This document shows positions 188 to 10,314 of a DNA stretch of 10,383 nt, in pieces (the stretch's first letter is position 1; every line of letters begins with the position of its first letter). The translations under genes and the position numbers were made by a program. The notes beneath the pieces are model-generated. The model was given only the letters and a program-made list of their open reading frames with translations. It searched no databases and had not been told where the DNA came from. This DNA comes from Deltaproteobacteria bacterium (GTDB taxonomy: Bacteria > Desulfobacterota > Syntrophia > Syntrophales > UBA2210), in the NCBI GenBank assembly GCA_016935935.1, contig JAFGPZ010000179.1, positions 1 to 10,383 on the forward strand. The letters run 5' to 3'.

Positions 188-1021
188 ATGTTGAAAAGAC
201 TTCTTCTTACCTGCCTGACGCTGGTGGGCGTCGTTTTCTTAAGCGGGGCTCAGCCATACGAATATCCCCCCGATATGAGGGAAATCGCGAAACGGGGCAA
301 GCTTGTCGTGGCCATGTGCGCGCAAGACCGGCCCCCGTTCGTCGTAACGGGCGCAGACGGCACTCTGTCCGGGATGGATGTGGAACTGGCGCGGAGCATA
401 GGGGATCGCCTCGGCGTGCCGACCGAAATAGACCGGAGCGCCGCAACCTATGATGAGGTCATCAACCGGGTGGCAAAGGGGAACGCCGATATCGGAATAT
501 CACTCTTGAGCGCTACGACCGAACGTGCCCGCCGCGTCCTTTTTACTGAGCCCTACCTTTATGTATGTCCATCCCTTCTGGTAAACCGCAGAAAGGAAAT
601 CGATTTGAAACGGAAAGCGGCCGGAAAGGACTGGCTGCACGGACCGGGGGTTTCCATCGGGGTGATGCGGGGTTCATCCTACGAGGAATTTGTGCGGGAG
701 TTTTTCCCCTCGGCGCAGATAACGACATACAACCGGTGGAAAGTGCTGAACGGGGCGGTTCTCAGGGGAGATGTCACGGCGGTCCTCCAGAGCGGGGCTG
801 TTCTGTGTAATATGATCATGGATGAACCGGCGATCTACCTTACACACCGCCTTATACGGATCGAGGGGAAAGAGGATCGCTTCGCATGTGCCCTGCCGGC
901 AACCTCAATCTATTTCCTGACCTGGGTTAACCTTCTGCTTGCCCAGCGGGAAAATTTATCCCACAGACCTCTGGAAGAGGTCATGATCAGAAACTGGAAT
1001 AATACAGGGGCAGTGAGATGA
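188..1021 (+). CDS. Periplasmic solute-binding protein, SBP_bac_3 family (first of two)
   Basis: This 277-residue protein binds a small solute in the periplasm. Residues 1-21 form a Sec signal peptide (basic MLKR, hydrophobic core, SGA before the likely cut), and there is no lipobox. The mature part follows the family-3 (amino-acid type) fold: RGKLVVA near 36-42, SGMDVELA near 61-68, ADIGIS at 100-105, TTERA at 110-114 with the family ligand Arg at 113, EPY at 121-123 and RGSS at 161-164. Where family members usually have an Asp contacting the ligand alpha-amino group, this protein reads AVLQSG (198-203), so the ligand may not be a standard alpha-amino acid. The ATG at 188 follows a modest ACGGG ribosome site. 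Its TGA overlaps the symporter ATG (ATGA), and no ABC permease or ATPase is present. A family-3 domain is near certain; the substrate is unknown. Confidence 0.9.
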   Translation: MLKRLLLTCLTLVGVVFLSGAQPYEYPPDMREIAKRGKLVVAMCAQDRPPFVVTGADGTLSGMDVELARSIGDRLGVPTEIDRSAATYDEVINRVAKGNADIGISLLSATTERARRVLFTEPYLYVCPSLLVNRRKEIDLKRKAAGKDWLHGPGVSIGVMRGSSYEEFVREFFPSAQITTYNRWKVLNGAVLRGDVTAVLQSGAVLCNMIMDEPAIYLTHRLIRIEGKEDRFACALPATSIYFLTWVNLLLAQRENLSHRPLEEVMIRNWNNTGAVR

Positions 1022-2289
1022 TTTGGAAGTGGAAGAAGATATCGTTGCACAAGCGACTTACGATGCAGAGTCCCTGGGTGATCCTTGGGGCCATTATCGC
1101 CGGCGGTCTCTTCGGATATTTCTTCAAAGGACCGGCCCAGCACCTTACCGCGCCGGGCAGAATCTTTATCGGTCTCATGCAGATGTGCATCCTGCCCATC
1201 ATGATCACAGCCATCATTTCCAGTGTGGGAAGGCTGGTCAAAGAACCGGGATCGATCCGGATCATCAGAACCCTCTTCATCCTCATCTTTACGGGCCTTT
1301 TTCTGGCCAGCGCCGTTGGACTGGGGGCCGGTCTTGCGGGAAGGCCGGGGGCCGCCCTTTCACAGCAGGCAAAGGCAGGCATGGGCAAGATGCTCTTTAT
1401 GTCCGAACAGAGTGCCGTAAAGGAAACCGCCAAAAGCAATACCCCCCTTGCCGACTTTTTTGTCAAAATCGTGCCGACAAACATATTTGCGGCCCTCAGC
1501 GAGGGCAACAGTCTCCGGATACTTCTCTTTACACTTCTGCTGGGGGTTGCCATCGGCCTGGTACCTCATGCCGCCAGCGAGACCATCATCGATTTTATGA
1601 TCGCCCTTTTCGAGGCCTTTAAAACTATTATCGGCTGGGTGATGAAGGCACTGCCTGTCGGCCTCTTTTGCGTCTTTGCAGGCAGCGTTGCCACGACAGG
1701 CCTGGGCATATTCCAATCGCTGGGCAAGCTGCTTGCCGTAATCTACGGGTCTGCCGTGGTCCTTTTTATCATCTACCAGCTTCTGATCAGTATTTCCTCC
1801 AGACAATCCATCTGGCAATCCTTTGTCGCCCTGCGCGAGACCTACCTGGTTGCCCTGGGAACGGCGAACAGCTTTGTCGCTCTGCCCTCGGCCTTAAACA
1901 GTGTGCAGAAGAATCTTAAACTGGACGAGAAGATGTCCAATCTTATCATCCCCCTGGGAATCGTAATAAACCGTCAGGGGGTGGTGCTCTGTTTTGCCGT
2001 GACCGCCGTATTCCTCGCCCAGTTATACGACGTTACTCTGGGAGTGGAAAAGATGGTGATCATCCTTGTCGGCGCCGCACTGGCAGGTATGGCCGCCCTG
2101 GGGAGACTGGGCGTGGCCGCATCGCTACTCGCATTCGTTCTTGAGCCTCTGGGGTTGCCGGTAGAGACGGCCTTTATTGTCCTTTTCTCGCTTGAAATCT
2201 TTCTGGATCCCCTGACGGCCGTTTTAATCATTCAATCGAACTGCGGAACCGTGGCAGTTCTGGAACGGATTAACAGGCAAGGTCCATGA
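1018..2289 (+). CDS. DAACS/SDF-family secondary symporter (divergent GltP/DctA relative)
   Basis: This 423-residue inner-membrane protein resembles sodium- or proton-coupled dicarboxylate/amino-acid symporters. Visible hallmarks are the TM2 stretch FIGLMQMCILPIM (50-62), the VPTNIFAAL region (152-160), an HP1-like LGTANSFVALP (280-290) and the TM7 segment LIIPLGIVINRQGV (309-322). An HP2-like ALGRLGVAAS (360-369) and TM8 LEIFLDPLTAVLIIQSN (392-408) follow. The fold is clear but key residues are changed. The canonical NMDGT is NRQGV, and by hand alignment to GltPh TM8 the Arg397, Asn401 and Asp405 positions are Thr, Ile and Asn, while Asp394 is kept (D397 here). Cation coupling and substrate therefore probably differ from known members. 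The ATG at 1018 has AGGGG at 1006-1010 and overlaps the upstream stop by four bases; its own stop overlaps the next start in the same way. Tight coupling to two binding proteins suggests they feed it. Confidence 0.88.
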   Translation: MIWKWKKISLHKRLTMQSPWVILGAIIAGGLFGYFFKGPAQHLTAPGRIFIGLMQMCILPIMITAIISSVGRLVKEPGSIRIIRTLFILIFTGLFLASAVGLGAGLAGRPGAALSQQAKAGMGKMLFMSEQSAVKETAKSNTPLADFFVKIVPTNIFAALSEGNSLRILLFTLLLGVAIGLVPHAASETIIDFMIALFEAFKTIIGWVMKALPVGLFCVFAGSVATTGLGIFQSLGKLLAVIYGSAVVLFIIYQLLISISSRQSIWQSFVALRETYLVALGTANSFVALPSALNSVQKNLKLDEKMSNLIIPLGIVINRQGVVLCFAVTAVFLAQLYDVTLGVEKMVIILVGAALAGMAALGRLGVAASLLAFVLEPLGLPVETAFIVLFSLEIFLDPLTAVLIIQSNCGTVAVLERINRQGP

Positions 2290-3098
2290 AATTTCTGTTG
2301 CGTATATTACTAATCATCATTGCACTGCCGGCCTTTTTCGGAAGTCATGCCTATGGGAGGGACCTCTCTTCTCCCGATATGGCGAGAATACTGGAAAGGG
2401 GGAAACTCGTCGTGGCAGTGGTCGTAACGGAGGATTACCCCTTTTTCATGAAGACACCCGGGGGGAATGATACCGGTTTTGATATCGATATGGCCAGGGA
2501 TATTGCAGCGCGTCTGGGTGTAGGAGTCGAATTCAATCGGAAAGCCGCCACCTATAATGAGGTGATCGATATCGTGGCGCACAAGGAGGCCGATCTGGGC
2601 ATTTCCGATCTGACAACCACCCTGGAAAGGGCAAAAAAAGTGAGCTTCACGATCCCATACCTGAAGCTGAATACCTATATCCTTGCCAACCGCCGACAGG
2701 CGATCGCCTATCGGCATACCTCAACCCGGGGGATCGTCAACCGGCATGGGGTAACGATTATGGCGGAACGGGGTACTTCCTACGTGCAATTTGTAAAAAA
2801 GGAGTTTCCCCTCGCTACGGTCATCCTCCACGAGGATTTCGATGAGGGCCTTCAGGAGGTATTGAAGGGGAATGCCTTCGGCTTATTCGCCGGAGAGGCT
2901 TATGTCAAGACACTGGTCAGGGAAAGATCCGAAGTCTACCTGTATCTGGAGACCCTTATGATCGAGGGGCTGACGGACCGCATTGCTATCGCCGTTCCCT
3001 GGGCAAGCGTCCACCTGCTCGCCTGGCTTAATCTCTACCTGAAAACCGACATGGCGGGGATAACCATCGACGAGATTCTGAACCGCTATCCCCGATAA
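2286..3098 (+). CDS. Periplasmic solute-binding protein, SBP_bac_3 family (second, paralogous)
   Basis: This 270-residue exported binding protein is a clear paralogue of the protein encoded at 188-1021. They share the RGKLVVA, AATY-EVI, AD-GIS, ERA-KV, PYL and NRR blocks in the same order. Residues 1-22 form a signal peptide (MKFLLR, hydrophobic core, SHA). Ligand-site landmarks are TGFDIDMA (63-70), ADLGIS (102-107), ERAKKV with Arg115, and RGTS (162-165). The site that usually carries a ligand Asp reads LFAGEA (200-205), so this copy also lacks the standard alpha-amino contact but has a Glu nearby. The two paralogues differ most in the lobe-1 contact segment (VVTEDYPFF versus CAQDRPPFV), which hints at different ligands. 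The ATG at 2286 overlaps the symporter TGA (ATGA) with AAGG just upstream. No ABC components are nearby. Confidence 0.9.
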   Translation: MKFLLRILLIIIALPAFFGSHAYGRDLSSPDMARILERGKLVVAVVVTEDYPFFMKTPGGNDTGFDIDMARDIAARLGVGVEFNRKAATYNEVIDIVAHKEADLGISDLTTTLERAKKVSFTIPYLKLNTYILANRRQAIAYRHTSTRGIVNRHGVTIMAERGTSYVQFVKKEFPLATVILHEDFDEGLQEVLKGNAFGLFAGEAYVKTLVRERSEVYLYLETLMIEGLTDRIAIAVPWASVHLLAWLNLYLKTDMAGITIDEILNRYPR

Positions 3099-3275
3099 TG
3101 CCTCTACAAAAATATAGGCAGTGCCCCTTGTTTTTATGTTTTCCCGGGATGCATTAGATGTGAGGAGGAAGGGAACAGTTCGACAAAGAAAGCCAACGTA
3201 TTCAAGATAAGTGTGCTTCTGATGCCTTCAAAGATGGAGGTTCATCTGCGGAGGAAAGATGCACTGAAACGAATT
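3099..3275. other. Intergenic region after the transporter operon
   Basis: A small inverted repeat TGCCT (3099-3103)/AGGCA (3116-3120) starts right after the operon stop. A T-rich tract (GTTTTTATGTTTT) lies about ten bases further on. This may be a weak terminator, but stem and U-tract are not adjacent, so I do not call it firmly. Short frames reach only about 20 residues and none resembles a known protein. The region leads into the repeat copy at 3276. Confidence 0.4.
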
Positions 3276-3301
3276 GGGAAGTGTCCCTGATTTTTCCAAT
3301 T
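3272..3301 (+). repeat. Dispersed repeat copy 1 (core GGGAAGTGTCCCTG)
   Basis: The core GGGAAGTGTCCCTG sits at 3276-3289, followed by a T-rich arm and CC at 3296-3297. The copy lies inside its own inverted repeat: AATTGG at 3272-3277 pairs with CCAATT at 3296-3301, with an inner GGGA/TCCC mini-stem. Related cores occur at 5220-5236 (opposite strand) and 8267-8292 (same strand). It lies 30 bases upstream of the small secreted-protein gene. The pattern fits a REP-like intergenic repeat or the end of a mobile cassette; no transposase is in the window. Confidence 0.7.
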
Positions 3302-3330
3302 ATCTGGAAATGTATAAAGGGGAGAACAAA

Positions 3331-3621
3331 ATGAAAACAGGCATAAAAAATAAAATAGTGAGAAAAGTTGTTTTTACGCTCATACTTATCTGCATATTGG
3401 TACTACTTATATCACCCATGTCATCAGCCAACGACGGCAAATACGTCTGTAAGTGCAAAGGGATACCGTCTTGGTGGCCGTTATGGACCATTTACACTAG
3501 CTGCGGCAATAGTTTTATAGGGAGCGACAAGGATCAAATCGATACGGAAATCACAGAGCAAAATCCGGACGTCCTCGAAAAACGAAACCGATGTAATATG
3601 GGAGTATTCCTGGTTGTATGA
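3331..3621 (+). CDS. Small secreted cysteine-containing protein, unknown function
   Basis: I do not recognise this 96-residue protein. Residues 1-33 look like a Sec signal peptide (MKTGIKNKIVRK, a long hydrophobic run, SSA before the likely cut), leaving a mature part of about 63 residues. That part has four cysteines (residues 40, 42, 58 and 88, including a CKC pair) and an aromatic patch SWWPLW (48-52), which suggests a small disulfide-stabilised or metal-binding periplasmic protein. I chose the ATG at 3331 because AAAGGGGAG lies just upstream at 3317-3325; an earlier TTG at 3274 would start inside the dispersed repeat. The TGA overlaps the antiporter ATG (ATGA at 3618-3621), so the two are probably co-translated. 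Composition is AT-richer than the antiporter, and the C-terminus (GVFLVV) is hydrophobic. It could be an accessory factor of the antiporter or a hitch-hiking foreign gene. Confidence 0.6.
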   Translation: MKTGIKNKIVRKVVFTLILICILVLLISPMSSANDGKYVCKCKGIPSWWPLWTIYTSCGNSFIGSDKDQIDTEITEQNPDVLEKRNRCNMGVFLVV

Positions 3622-5219
3622 ACCCTTTATGGATTATAGCCGCCTTCGTCTTCGGTGCCATCGTCAGCAGGATCGGACTGCCTCCCCTCGTGGGATATCT
3701 CCTTGCCGGCTTTGCGCTGCACGGAATGGACATCACTGGCGGTGTCGTGCTGGAACGGGTCGCCGATGCCGGTGTGACGCTGCTCCTCTTTACTATCGGT
3801 CTCAAGTTGAAGATAAAGGGCCTGGCAAAGCCCGACGTCTGGGCCGGGACATCCATCCACATGCTTGTGACGGTCTCTCTCTTCGGCTTTGTGATATGGC
3901 TCCTGGCACTTTCAGGGTTACCCCTCTTTGATCGACTGAACGGCCGCACCGCCCTGCTCATCGCCTTCGCCCTCAGTTTCTCCAGTACGGTCTTTGCGGT
4001 GAAGGTGCTCGAGGAAAAGAAGGAGATGGCATCCCGCCACGCCGTTACCGCCATCGGTATTCTCATCATGCAGGATATCATTGCCGTGATATTCCTGGCC
4101 GCATCCACCGGCAGGGTTCCCTCCCTCTGGGCCGTACCACTCGTGGCTTCACTCTTCATTGTGCGGCCCCTGCTGGGACGGTTCATGGCACAATGCGGCC
4201 ATGGCGAACTGCTGATGCTCTTCGGTATTCTCATGACCGTCGCCGGTTACAGCAGCTTTGAAGTCGTGGGATTGAAAGGCGACCTGGGGGCACTGGTCTG
4301 CGGCATGCTCTTCGCCAATCATCCCAAGGCCCCTGAATTGGCGGAGCGGTTGCTCGGCTTCAAGGACCTCTTTCTCATCGGCTTCTTTCTCAATATCGGC
4401 ATGTCCGGCTTTCCCACGTCCACCGGTTTCATGATTGCCCTCCTGCTGGCGCTGATCATGCCCGTCAAGGCAGGGTTGTTCTTCCTTATTCTGACGCGGC
4501 TGAGGCTGCGCGCACGGACATCGCTCCTGGCTTCGCTCAGCCTGGCGAATTACAGTGAATTCGGTCTCATCGTCGGGTCCATCGGTGTGGCACAGGGCTG
4601 GATCGGCAGTGAATGGCTGGTCATTATTGCCCTTGCCCTGTCATTGACCTTCATCATGGCTGCACCGCTGAATGCCGCCGCCCACAACCTGTACGCACGT
4701 CTGTCAAGCCCCCTGAAATTCTTCGAAACTGCGAAACGACTCCCCGAAGACGCGCCCGTTGACTCCGGTGATGCCGAGATTGTCATTATCGGTATGGGAG
4801 GGGTGGGGACAAGCGCCTATGATGAAATGAGTCGCCGGTACGGCGATATTGCCATCGGTATCGATTTTAATATCGAAACGGTGGAGAAACATCAAAAGAG
4901 AGGTCGCAACGTGATTTACGGCGACGCCGAGGACAGCGATTTCTGGAAACGTATCGACCCTGCAAAGAGTCAGGTCATGCTGGTGATGCTGACCCTGCCC
5001 GCTCCCCGGGCGGGCGTATTTGCCATTCACCAGATGAGGGAGCGGGGCTACACGGGGCAGATCACCGCGTCGGTACGCTATGATGACGAGGCGTACCTCC
5101 TGCAGGATGCAGGGATCGATGCCGTATACTTTCTCTATGAAGAGGCCGGCGTCGGCTTCGCCGATCACGTGTGTGAACACATGGACTACTGCAGACTCAA
5201 AGAAGAAAGTGAAAAATAG
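3618..5219 (+). CDS. CPA2-family cation:proton antiporter with C-terminal RCK (TrkA-N) domain, KefB/YbaL-like
   Basis: This 533-residue inner-membrane protein exchanges K+ or Na+ for protons, or acts as a gated K+ efflux system. The membrane part covers residues 1-360. It includes the family start IGLPPLVGYLLAG (19-31), LFTIGL (57-62), FALSFSSTVFAVKVL (117-131), the QD pair at 152-153 whose Asp is the ion/proton site in CPA2 proteins, and LSLANYSEFGLIVG (307-320). A cytoplasmic Rossmann RCK domain spans about 385-520, with GMGGVG (392-397) and an acidic Asp416 at the end of the second strand, as expected for NAD(H) binding. No TrkA-C domain follows. The protein ends in KEESEK, and its TAG abuts the repeat at 5220, so the tail may have been changed by that repeat. 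The start overlaps the preceding stop, and GGGAG lies rather far upstream (3600-3604). Confidence 0.92.
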   Translation: MNPLWIIAAFVFGAIVSRIGLPPLVGYLLAGFALHGMDITGGVVLERVADAGVTLLLFTIGLKLKIKGLAKPDVWAGTSIHMLVTVSLFGFVIWLLALSGLPLFDRLNGRTALLIAFALSFSSTVFAVKVLEEKKEMASRHAVTAIGILIMQDIIAVIFLAASTGRVPSLWAVPLVASLFIVRPLLGRFMAQCGHGELLMLFGILMTVAGYSSFEVVGLKGDLGALVCGMLFANHPKAPELAERLLGFKDLFLIGFFLNIGMSGFPTSTGFMIALLLALIMPVKAGLFFLILTRLRLRARTSLLASLSLANYSEFGLIVGSIGVAQGWIGSEWLVIIALALSLTFIMAAPLNAAAHNLYARLSSPLKFFETAKRLPEDAPVDSGDAEIVIIGMGGVGTSAYDEMSRRYGDIAIGIDFNIETVEKHQKRGRNVIYGDAEDSDFWKRIDPAKSQVMLVMLTLPAPRAGVFAIHQMRERGYTGQITASVRYDDEAYLLQDAGIDAVYFLYEEAGVGFADHVCEHMDYCRLKEESEK

Positions 5220-8367: not shown

Positions 8368-10314
8368 ATGTGTATTAGATATTTAGACGAAATGCAGAAT
8401 CCAGATTTCTTATCGCCGTTATTATATGAAATAGAAGCTAAAAGATCTGAAGCGAGAAGAAAAGCAAACCAATTTATCTATAAAACAGTTATTGAAGCTG
8501 ATTTAGAAGAATATTTGGCTAAAGAATGGGATATATCAAAAAAAAATAAGAAGAGTTATCGGTTAAAGAAATTCAAGAGCCACGATATTGCACTAGAGGA
8601 TAGGGTTTGGTGTTTAGTTGAAAAAATGGGATATCACACAATGAATGGTGATAAATTTGTTATTACATATGAACGTGATGATAATAGTCAAGGCAAAAAG
8701 CAAATTGATGTTTTTGGTTGTGATGAAGAAACTGCATTAGTCATTGAATGTAAATCAAAAAAAGATCGAGGAAGAAAATCTCTGCAAAAGGATCTCCACG
8801 AAACCATATATCTTCAAGAGTTTATTAGAAAATCCATTTATAAACACTACACAAACAAGCCTTTACCAAAAATCATTTGGATCTATGCTACGAACAACAT
8901 CATATGGTCTGAACCTGATGTTGAAAGAGCACTTTCAGGTAACATAATCATAATAACAGAAAACGAACTTCAATATTTTGAGACTTTCATTAAACATATG
9001 GGTCCCGCAGGAAAATATCAGATTCTTGCCGAATTTTTAAAAAATCAAAAGGTAGCGGGACTGCCAGAAGTTAAGATTCCATGTATTAAAGGTAAAATTG
9101 GGGGTGAAGTCTTCTATAGTTTTGTGACAACGCCAAGGATTCTTTTAAAAATTGCATTTGTCAATCATCAGGCTTTAAATCATCCTGATGGCAGACCGGC
9201 TTATCAAAGAATGATTTCATCTGCGAGGATCAATGAAATTGGGAAATACATCATTAATGGTGGATATTTTCCAACCAATATAATTGTAAATTTTTTAAAC
9301 CCTCCAAATTTCCAATATCTTCCAAACAAAGAAAATACAGATCCCATGATAAAATTTGGATGGATTGCGCTACCTAAAAAGTTTAGAAGCGCATGGATAA
9401 TTGATGGACAACATCGTCTGTATGGCTATTCAAAATTAGACGACAAATATTTGGATCAAAGCCTGCTTGTTCTTGGGTTTGAAAAAATGGATACAAGGAA
9501 AGAGGCAGATCTTTTTATAACGATTAATCACAAACAAAAAAGTGTACCAAAAAGTCTGCTGGTCAGCCTATTGGCAGATATACGCTTGGGCTCTGATGAT
9601 CCAAAAACAGCATTGTCTGCATTAGCTTCAGCAGTTGTTAGGACATTATATTCAGACAATACAAGTCCTTTATTTAGACGATATAGTCTGCCAGGTGTAC
9701 CTCCATCACCAAGTCAAAACTTAACTATTTCAGAGACAGTCAATGGTTTTAATAGATCTATGCTTTTGGGTAAGATCATCCATGGCACAATTGTGCCGGG
9801 GCCACTTAGTGCAGCAACCGATACTGAAACGATACAACGTGCCCGCCTTGTATTAAATGAGTATTTTGAGGCAATAAGAAAAACAAATCCCGAAAGGTGG
9901 GAACGGGGGAAAACAGCATATATATGTGTAAACCCCGGAATACGAGCACATTTGTCTTTATTGAGTGAGATCATTAAATACCTAGAACTGAAGAAAAATA
10001 TAGATTTTCAGCTGCTAAATGAGCGGGATTTTATAAAAATGGTTCTTGGCATTGCAAAACCAGTTATAAAATACATCAAAAATGCAAGTGACAATGAGAT
10101 TTATGAAAGTTTCTCAAGAAAATTTGGAGAAGGTGGTGTTAAAGAGTATTTTTACAAAATGTGTGAAATCGTAAGTGAAGAATTTAGCGATTTTGGATCC
10201 GACGAATTTAAAGATTTTATGGTAAAAAGAGATGACGAACGTGTTGCCGAGGCCGATCAATTTATTATAAAACTTACAAATGATATTTCTAATTATGTAA
10301 TTAGTCCCCCCTGA
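8368..10314 (+). CDS. PD-(D/E)XK nuclease-DGQHR (DndB-like) fusion protein
   Basis: This 648-residue protein joins two recognisable parts. Residues about 70-210 resemble a Mrr/Holliday-resolvase-type PD-(D/E)XK nuclease: VEKMGYHTMNGDKF (84-97), KQIDVFG with Asp114 (111-117) and LVIECKSKK with Glu127 and Lys129 (124-132), spaced as catalytic residues. Residues about 240-560 form a DGQHR domain: PAYQRMISSARINEIGKYI (277-295), SAWIIDGQHRLYGY (341-354) and LFITINHKQKSVPKSLL (382-398). DGQHR proteins include DndB, a regulator in phosphorothioate DNA modification, and are related to ParB/sulfiredoxin folds. The remaining C-terminal part is helical and unassigned. No dnd, ssp or dpd partner is in the window. 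The ATG at 8368 follows GGAG at 8359-8362. The gene is far AT-richer than its neighbours, which indicates horizontal transfer. A role in phage or plasmid defence is inferred. Confidence 0.85.
   Translation: MCIRYLDEMQNPDFLSPLLYEIEAKRSEARRKANQFIYKTVIEADLEEYLAKEWDISKKNKKSYRLKKFKSHDIALEDRVWCLVEKMGYHTMNGDKFVITYERDDNSQGKKQIDVFGCDEETALVIECKSKKDRGRKSLQKDLHETIYLQEFIRKSIYKHYTNKPLPKIIWIYATNNIIWSEPDVERALSGNIIIITENELQYFETFIKHMGPAGKYQILAEFLKNQKVAGLPEVKIPCIKGKIGGEVFYSFVTTPRILLKIAFVNHQALNHPDGRPAYQRMISSARINEIGKYIINGGYFPTNIIVNFLNPPNFQYLPNKENTDPMIKFGWIALPKKFRSAWIIDGQHRLYGYSKLDDKYLDQSLLVLGFEKMDTRKEADLFITINHKQKSVPKSLLVSLLADIRLGSDDPKTALSALASAVVRTLYSDNTSPLFRRYSLPGVPPSPSQNLTISETVNGFNRSMLLGKIIHGTIVPGPLSAATDTETIQRARLVLNEYFEAIRKTNPERWERGKTAYICVNPGIRAHLSLLSEIIKYLELKKNIDFQLLNERDFIKMVLGIAKPVIKYIKNASDNEIYESFSRKFGEGGVKEYFYKMCEIVSEEFSDFGSDEFKDFMVKRDDERVAEADQFIIKLTNDISNYVISPP

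What the first reader, a model, noticed from the sequence alone, without database searches (positions are those of the whole stretch)
188..3098. SBP-symporter-SBP operon: possible binding-protein-dependent DAACS transporter
Two paralogous family-3 periplasmic binding proteins flank a DAACS/SDF symporter with four-base stop/start overlaps on both sides, and no ABC permease or ATPase is present. Such binding proteins normally serve ABC importers or sensors, and DAACS symporters normally act alone; SBP-fed secondary transport is established for TRAP and TTT systems. The arrangement suggests an SBP-dependent (or SBP-sensed) symporter with two ligand inputs.
Basis: partly seen in the sequence, partly recalled or inferred. 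Interest (0 to 1): 0.8.

Follow-up and report, generated by a model that had tools for sequence, protein, structure and literature searches.

The report
Binding-protein-linked SDF transporter family
Bacteria carry a rare but scattered branch of the glutamate-transporter family whose genes usually sit beside, or are fused to, a periplasmic binding protein and which lacks key sodium-binding residues, suggesting a new type of binding-protein-dependent transporter that some lineages also wire to signalling enzymes.

Summary
SBP1 (188-1021), SDF (1018-2289) and SBP2 (2286-3098) are intact and overlap by four bases at both junctions. The pairing is not local. The window's SDF falls in one clade (73 of 73 members, two trees). 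Of 28 clade genes found in 1,393 genomes by SDF sequence alone, 21 have an SBP_bac_3 gene adjacent or fused, 3 one gene away, 2 in the same cluster, 2 none in the stretch read; of 59 control SDF loci (about 1.5 kb flanks) none does. Fusions occur in both orders, each with the extra helix that keeps the SBP outside. The Asp of NMDGT and the Na1 Asp are absent in 73 of 73, so classical sodium coupling is unlikely. In seven genomes of one order the operon is SBP, dCache-cyclase, SDF; one Lachnospiraceae SDF is fused to dCache-HAMP-SpoIIE; in two other loci a DcaP porin gene precedes SBP-SDF. Best reading: an SBP-dependent elevator carrier for a carboxylate, sometimes coupled to signalling (0.6); main rival: a receptor without transport (0.25). 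Nearest published case: TAXI-GltS.

The parts
188..1021 (+). SBP1, family-3 solute-binding protein with N-terminal signal-type segment
   Evidence: PF00497 E 2.8e-18; HisJ R77 equivalent kept, D11 and D161 equivalents A and S
1018..1021 (+). ATGA overlap, SBP1 stop and SDF start
   Evidence: sequence
1018..2289 (+). SDF/DAACS-fold membrane protein of the SBP-linked clade; NRQGV in place of NMDGT
   Evidence: PF00375 E 8.2e-68; AlphaFold2 pLDDT 76.5, best PDB matches ASCT2, GltPh, GltTk; clade
2286..2289 (+). ATGA overlap, SDF stop and SBP2 start
   Evidence: sequence
2286..3098 (+). SBP2, family-3 solute-binding protein
   Evidence: PF00497 E 7.3e-20; model pLDDT 91.1 resembling amino-acid SBPs; R77 kept, D11 and D161 equivalents V and G

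Best explanation
The three genes encode one functional unit: two secreted family-3 binding proteins and a membrane protein of a distinct, binding-protein-linked clade of the SDF (SLC1/DAACS) fold. Shown by sequence: co-location, start/stop overlap, conserved pairing in relatives from several phyla, natural fusions in both orders, common ancestry of the SDF partners, loss of the NMDGT Asp and the Na1 Asp. Inferred: the SBPs capture a scarce carboxylate-bearing solute in the periplasm and dock on the SDF, whose elevator domain carries it inward; the altered cation site (D312 to Q/F/Y, D405 to N, often M311 to R, GltPh numbering) means the cycle is not the classical three-Na+ one and is probably H+-coupled or has a fixed Arg charge in place of a Na+. 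In some lineages the same unit is wired to a dCache signalling enzyme, so that uptake and sensing are joined.
For: Of 28 clade SDF genes at E<=1e-70 in 23 of 1,393 genomes, 21 have SBP_bac_3 directly adjacent or fused, 3 one gene away, 2 within 7 kb, 2 none; 0 of 59 control SDF loci (Fisher p 1.6e-14 for 21/28, not corrected for kinship). In the contig scan 23 of 25 loci, some of them close kin. Ten of the pairs overlap by exactly 4 bases (L001, L002, L015, L018, L019, L020, L021, L023, L024, L150). Fusions: L140 signal-SBP-helix 365-391-SDF; P0110/P0116 SDF-helix 401-419-SBP. One clade, 73 of 73, support 0.83 and 0.98, the P0110 fusions as sister. No HisQ/HisM/GlnP homologue in 47 loci, window included. 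DcaP porin gene 27 and 17 bases before SBP-SDF in L017 and L018. Elevator fold. HisJ R77 kept in 74 of 80 SBPs, about half of which are homologues of unknown neighbourhood.
Against: No transport, binding or complex has been measured. Loss of D312 and D405 in all 73 and of R397 in 58 could also mean a protein that no longer transports. dCache-cyclase or SpoIIE partners suit a receptor. Clade members without an SBP in the stretch read exist: L137 and L139 among the 28, L014 (7 kb each side), and L153 at a contig edge.
Confidence: 0.6

Rival explanations
1. SBP and SDF form a receptor, not an importer. The SDF has become a transmembrane signal relay (as SDF-family DctA is co-regulator of DcuS), and the loaded SBP signals through it to a dCache cyclase, SpoIIE phosphatase or histidine kinase.
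For: SBP, dCache-cyclase, SDF operon in all 7 SDF-positive genomes of the 9 searched in one order, whose genomes are 0.8-1.3 Mb; cyclase-model match in 13 of 53 clade loci; at the same 1.5 kb flank 5 of the 28 clade genes (L060, L061, L063, L064, L067) against 0 of 59 controls; L021 SDF fused to dCache-HAMP-SpoIIE (Pfam), and the dCache part of L021 and of the like-sized L022 matches the cyclase model; L024 followed by HisKA kinase and sigma-54 regulator; NMDGT and Na1 Asp lost in 73 of 73. DctA-DcuS precedent: PMC8307970, passages read.
Against: In the other 40 of the 53 loci the cyclase model finds no cyclase (other signalling families were looked for only in selected neighbours); the window's downstream neighbours are not signalling partners of the pair, its upstream side is unknown; porin, racemase and phosphonate genes beside other members suit uptake; the binding region is conserved rather than decayed (T275 in 72 of 73, D394 in 54).
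Confidence: 0.25
2. SBPs and SDF take up the same nutrient in parallel without touching: the SBPs serve an ABC importer or sensor encoded elsewhere and the SDF works alone.
For: The window's upstream side is missing; orphan SBPs that share an ABC permease are known in general (recalled).
Against: Fusions in two different orders, single clade, 0 of 59 controls, no HisQ/HisM/GlnP homologue in 47 loci.
Confidence: 0.09
3. The SBPs only regulate (gate or inhibit) a self-sufficient SDF carrier.
For: Compatible with adjacency and fusions.
Against: No precedent among the papers I saw; substrate residue R397 and cation residues are changed in most or all members, which suggests dependence on a partner.
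Confidence: 0.06

Closest known systems
TAXI-GltS (PMC12344293; abstract, passages, Results section on GltS and Discussion read)
   Same: SBP gene overlapping an elevator-type glutamate symporter gene in diverse bacteria, with gene fusions; proposed as SBP-dependent secondary transporter
   Different: SBP is TAXI type and membrane part is ESS/GltS; here SBP_bac_3 (once Peripla_BP_6) and SDF. There the SBP's ligand was measured, the coupling inferred
TRAP transporters (DctPQM, SiaPQM)
   Same: SBP-fed elevator secondary transport
   Different: No DctQ/DctM-type membrane protein; SDF fold; different SBP family
DAACS/SDF carriers (GltPh, GltTk, DctA, EAAT)
   Same: Fold and Pfam family
   Different: NMDGT replaced, D312 and D405 absent in 73 of 73 clade members, SBP partner
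Polar amino acid ABC importers (HisJQMP, GlnHPQ)
   Same: SBP family 3
   Different: No permease partner found; SDF instead
DctA-DcuS co-sensor unit (PMC8307970, passages)
   Same: SDF-family carrier paired with a sensor protein
   Different: No SBP there; here dCache with cyclase or SpoIIE output, and an SDF-dCache-SpoIIE fusion

Membership tests
SDF / DAACS (PF00375, TC 2.A.23) | Sequence family and fold | tested here: met
   PF00375 E 8.2e-68; query TM-score 0.77 to ASCT2, 0.76 to GltTk 7ngh, about 0.7 to outward GltPh
SDF / DAACS (PF00375, TC 2.A.23) | NMDGT motif and Na1 Asp (D405 in GltPh; PMC5110648 passages) | tested here: not met
   Window NRQGV and N; 0 of 73 clade members keep either Asp, controls 46 and 54 of 59, distant homologues 38 and 51 of 76
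SDF / DAACS (PF00375, TC 2.A.23) | Cation-coupled transport without a binding protein | not testable with these tools
   needs uptake assay
SBP family 3 (PF00497) | Family match, export signal, carboxylate-binding Arg (role recalled) | tested here: met
SBP family 3 (PF00497) | Ligand amino-group Asp (HisJ D161; role recalled; typical of amino-acid binders, not of the Pfam family as a whole) | tested here: not met
   S in SBP1, G in SBP2; D in 42 of 80 relatives
Polar amino acid ABC importer | Permease and ATPase genes beside the SBP | tested here: inconclusive
   no permease homologue in 47 clade loci including the window, but the window ends 187 bases upstream
TRAP / TTT transporter | DctQM or TctAB membrane proteins | tested here: not met
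   Pfam of nine window ORFs
TAXI-GltS | TAXI SBP with ESS symporter | tested here: not met
   PF00497 and PF00375 instead
SBP-dependent secondary transporters (general kind) | Conserved coupling of SBP and secondary carrier genes | tested here: met
   21 of 28 adjacent or fused vs 0 of 59
SBP-dependent secondary transporters (general kind) | Transport requires the SBP | not testable with these tools
   needs uptake assay

The most novel reading that the evidence does not exclude
A new class of transceptor: loaded binding protein drives an SLC1-fold elevator that is no longer sodium-coupled and whose movement controls a dCache cyclase or phosphatase, so that one complex both imports and reports its solute; SBPs of different families (SBP_bac_3, Peripla_BP_6) can be plugged into the same membrane part.
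Probability: 0.25. Interest if true: 0.92.

Novelty: new variant of a known kind. Interest (0 to 1): 0.78.

Why it matters
The TAXI-GltS authors asked why so few secondary transporters use binding proteins and suggested that an elevator mechanism may be what permits it, testable with further classes (PMC12344293, Discussion). SDF is one of the best-studied elevator families (GltPh, EAATs), so an SBP-dependent SDF branch would allow that test with a large structural toolkit. The natural loss of the NMDGT and Na1 Asp together with a binding protein asks how coupling is replaced, and the cyclase and SpoIIE partners would link an SLC1-fold protein to second-messenger or phosphatase control.

Tried and rejected
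Single-sequence genome-contig scan found nothing; the profile scan worked. The plasmid search listed only SDFs below 31% identity among the 15 rows shown of 485, and the viral scan two distant SDFs, L026 and L027. The R276-S278 rows used a wrong anchor and were discarded; one search gives them correctly. My first SBP model missed one divergent SBP (L002 8325-9146), so a wider model was built; that SBP was in its training set, so HisJ and GlnH tblastn (13 and 2 of 47 clade loci, 0 of 59 controls each) is the independent check. The ORF caller missed the SBP of L173; tblastn showed it. Ligand naming by synteny: racemases (L011, L143-L145), an asparagine-synthase-like gene (L015 by Pfam; L016 and L020 by like start only) and phosphonate genes (L002) point to acidic amino acids or their analogues but disagree with the lost amino-group Asp in the window's SBPs, so I name only 'carboxylate'. 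ABC-partner reading rejected for lack of permeases. Rows dropped: L122 removed from the 60 controls as a clade member; L025 (contig edge, broken frame) left out of alignments; L019 and L154 left out of the SBP count; L154 and L141 repeat L007 and L002.

Limits: controls come from two classes only (Gammaproteobacteria, Clostridia), are high-scoring SDFs, and have 1.5 kb flanks (54 of 59 with 1 kb or more on both sides), so only the 21 adjacent cases are a like-for-like comparison, not the 3 cases one gene away. The whole-genome searches scored only part of the candidates in larger genomes (for example 7 of 15), so 28 is a lower bound. Genomes that served as search centres are among the 23 positives. 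Fisher values ignore kinship. The protein search scored only the 7,996 candidates sharing most words. 'Triple conserved in close relatives' rests on equal contig lengths. No coordinates or complex models were available.
Full report
Observation. The window holds three co-directional, intact ORFs: SBP1 188-1021, SDF 1018-2289, SBP2 2286-3098. Pfam places them in SBP_bac_3 (PF00497) and SDF (PF00375). The NCBIfam models they match (DctA, GltP, SstT, ABC binding proteins) score far below their cut-offs, so none is an orthologue of a protein named there. Both junctions are ATGA overlaps. The SBPs are 37% identical and both have a signal-type N-terminus. The next sizeable gene downstream is a CPA2 antiporter at 3618, which I do not count as part of the unit. 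The contig begins 187 bases before SBP1 and no whole genome is held.

Structure. AlphaFold2 of the SDF with 28 sequences gave pLDDT 76.5 and pTM 0.74. The best Foldseek matches in the PDB are ASCT2, GltPh, GltTk, EAAT3 and an ancestral uncoupled aspartate transporter; query TM-scores among the 50 rows shown run from 0.51 to 0.77. SBP2 modelled at pLDDT 91.1 and matches amino-acid binding proteins such as AncCDT-1 and a Trp-bound SBP.

A clade, not a local accident. The SDF homologue search shows a group with 33-86% identity (P0002-P0028), then a drop in score from 221 to 131 bits to other SDFs, with fused SDF-SBP_bac_3 proteins P0110-P0113 and P0116 further down. A genome-contig scan with the group's profile, which uses only the SDF, returned 25 loci from Omnitrophota, Cyanobacteria, Desulfobacteraceae, Lentisphaerae, Thiomargarita, Clostridia, SAR324, Alphaproteobacteria and others by record title. 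In 23 of these 25 an SBP_bac_3-type ORF lies directly upstream on the same strand; the exceptions are L014 and L025, the latter at a contig edge. Some of the 25 are close kin (for example L003-L006, L018 and L019).

Whole-genome search with the profile (E<=1e-70): Desulfobacterota phylum 4 of 247, Alphaproteobacteria class 9 of 240, Gammaproteobacteria class 4 of 274, Cyanobacteriota phylum 4 of 194, Clostridia class 1 of 245, Omnitrophota phylum 1 of 193 (group names follow the titles of the centre loci, the tool names none). That is 28 genes in 23 of 1,393 genomes: rare and patchy, and a lower bound. Of the 28, 21 have the SBP adjacent or fused (one divergent at 124 bases, one downstream, one fused), 3 are one gene away, 2 lie in the same Omnitrophota cluster (3.5 and 6.3 kb), and 2 (L137, L139) have none in the stretch read. 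Control: of 60 SDF loci found by PF00375 in the same Gammaproteobacteria and Clostridia groups, one (L122) is a clade member; of the other 59 none has an SBP_bac_3 ORF in about 1.5 kb. Fisher p is 1.6e-14 for 21/28 against 0/59, ignoring kinship. Later searches gave 7 of 9 genomes in the order of G289, 4 of 150 in the order of L016, and only the centre itself among 180 in the family of L021. Of the six new genes, four have SBP_bac_3 adjacent, one is tandem behind one of these, and one has a Peripla_BP_6 gene instead.

In the close relatives of the window, SDF P0005, SBP1-type P0150 and SBP2-type P0124 are each reported on a 4,050-base contig, and other pairs share 4,364, 3,698, 2,957 or 6,838 bases. 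I infer that the triple is conserved there. L142 has SDF-SBP-SBP and L002 SBP-SDF-SBP, so two SBPs recur elsewhere.

Fusions and phylogeny. L140 (in the phylum of L008) is one 815-residue ORF: signal segment, SBP, hydrophobic helix 365-391, SDF. P0110 and P0116 have the opposite order: SDF, hydrophobic helix 401-419, SBP (Pfam on P0110; hydropathy). In each case the extra helix is what the topology needs to put the SBP outside (inference from the known SDF topology, recalled). In trees of 211 SDFs from two alignments and two models, all 73 clade members, including the few without SBP, form one group without intruders (support 0.83 and 0.98), with P0110-type fusions as sister (0.93 and 0.90).

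Altered site. In GltTk/GltPh, Na1 is held by the Asp of TM8 (D405 in GltPh), Na3 lies between the NMDGT region and TM3, and the motif's Met (M314 of GltTk) ligates Na2 (PMC5110648, passages read; the part of the motif Asp in Na3 is recalled). In the clade the motif Asp is kept in 0 of 73 (controls 46 of 59) and D405 in 0 of 73, with Asn in 56 (controls 54 of 59); R397 is kept in 15 (controls 46). The motif Met is Arg in 46 of 73 and in 0 of 59 controls. T275, S278 and D394 remain common (72, 59 and 54 of 73), and the clade has its own TM2 signature QMC (54 of 73). This looks like selection for a different site, not plain decay. Against specificity: among 76 distant homologues, the motif Asp is present in only 38, D405 in 51, and Arg replaces the Met in 17, so such changes are not confined to this clade.

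Ligand. Both window SBPs keep the HisJ R77 equivalent (carboxylate) but have lost the D161 and D11 equivalents (residue roles recalled). Across 80 SBPs, about half from clade loci and half from homologue searches, R77 is present in 74 and D161 in 42. A carboxylate ligand is likely; a standard alpha-amino acid is uncertain for the window.

Partners. No HisQ, HisM or GlnP homologue occurs in 47 clade loci including the window (a few places counted twice); ATPase matches occur in L007 (= L154), L012, L016 and L152, kilobases from the pair. Signalling partners: cyclase-model matches in L008, L009, L135, L136, L138, L144, L146, L149 and L168-L172, 13 of 53 clade loci (L001-L025, L071, L135-L153, L168-L176, without L141). 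Pfam was run on seven of the 13 (L008, L135, L136, L138, L144, L146, L149): all seven have Guanylate_cyc, and dCache_1 is above its cut-off in six, below it in L144. In eight the order is SBP, cyclase, SDF; in L144 and L146 the cyclase is on the other strand. At the same 1.5 kb flank 5 of the 28 clade genes and 0 of 59 controls have a cyclase match. L021 is SDF-dCache-HAMP-SpoIIE by Pfam; L022 is its like by length, and the dCache parts of both match the cyclase model. L024 is followed by a histidine kinase and sigma-54 regulator. Transport partners: DcaP porin genes 27 and 17 bases before the SBP in L017 and L018, amino-acid racemases in L011, L143, L144, L145, phosphonate genes in L002. In L175 a third SDF is preceded by a Peripla_BP_6 protein instead, as if the binding protein had been exchanged. 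Neighbours were annotated in selected loci only.

Interpretation. That SBP and SDF act as one unit is, in my judgement, above 0.9. Whether the unit imports (0.6 with altered coupling) or only senses (0.25) is open. The genomic evidence is of the type offered for TAXI-GltS (overlap, synteny, fusions), except that there SBP binding was also measured. [quoted passage not shown]

Literature. In searches of the open-access library I saw no paper on SBP-SDF pairs among the rows listed (20 of 151, 20 of 64, 15 of 17, 5 of 5, 4 of 4, 12 of 20, 3 of 3, 0); subscription papers and preprints are not held, so this is weak evidence of absence. PMC8276074 was seen as passages only; the DctA-DcuS papers as listing and PMC8307970 as passages.

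Noticed in passing
window 3274-3621 / 3618-5219: Small ORF (115 aa from TTG, inner ATG near 3331) with signal-type N-terminus and several Cys, no Pfam match, overlapping by 4 bases the start of a CPA2 antiporter with TrkA_N domain (KefC-like).
   Followed up: no
window 8368-10314: 648-aa protein whose C-terminal part matches DGQHR/DndB (TIGR03187, 152 bits) and whose first 235 residues match nothing in Pfam; they contain a stretch that reads to me like a PD-(D/E)XK nuclease.
   Followed up: no
L021 6980-10333, L022 6980-10301: SDF fused to dCache-HAMP-SpoIIE (Pfam run on L021 only) behind an SBP gene; L022 has a HATPase_c_2 anti-sigma-type gene upstream.
   Followed up: partly
L135, L136, L168-L172: Conserved operon SBP, dCache-cyclase, SDF in small (0.8-1.3 Mb) genomes of one order; a T6SS TssF gene follows in L169.
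   Followed up: partly
L175 14679-17268: Clade SDF preceded at 73 bases by a Peripla_BP_6 gene rather than SBP_bac_3; the same contig also has SBP_bac_3 with two tandem SDFs.
   Followed up: partly
L141 6187-16772 (L002): Omnitrophota cluster with three clade SDFs, PEP mutase, phosphonopyruvate decarboxylase, aminotransferase-like gene and two SBPs.
   Followed up: partly
L013 1906-5157: Peripla_BP_6 fused to MscS-type channel domains, directly downstream of an SBP-SDF pair.
   Followed up: no
L008 9769-10836: TAXI-type TRAP solute-binding gene (TIGR02122, 335 bits) about 1.4 kb downstream of the SBP-SDF pair, followed by a large ORF that may be its membrane part.
   Followed up: no
L020: Contig labelled Stygiobacter carries an SBP 97% identical to that of G1721, a genome in the order of Magnetospirillum L016: probable misbinning.
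   Followed up: partly
L001 7625-8913: Second clade SDF split between two frames next to an intact SBP-SDF pair.
   Followed up: no
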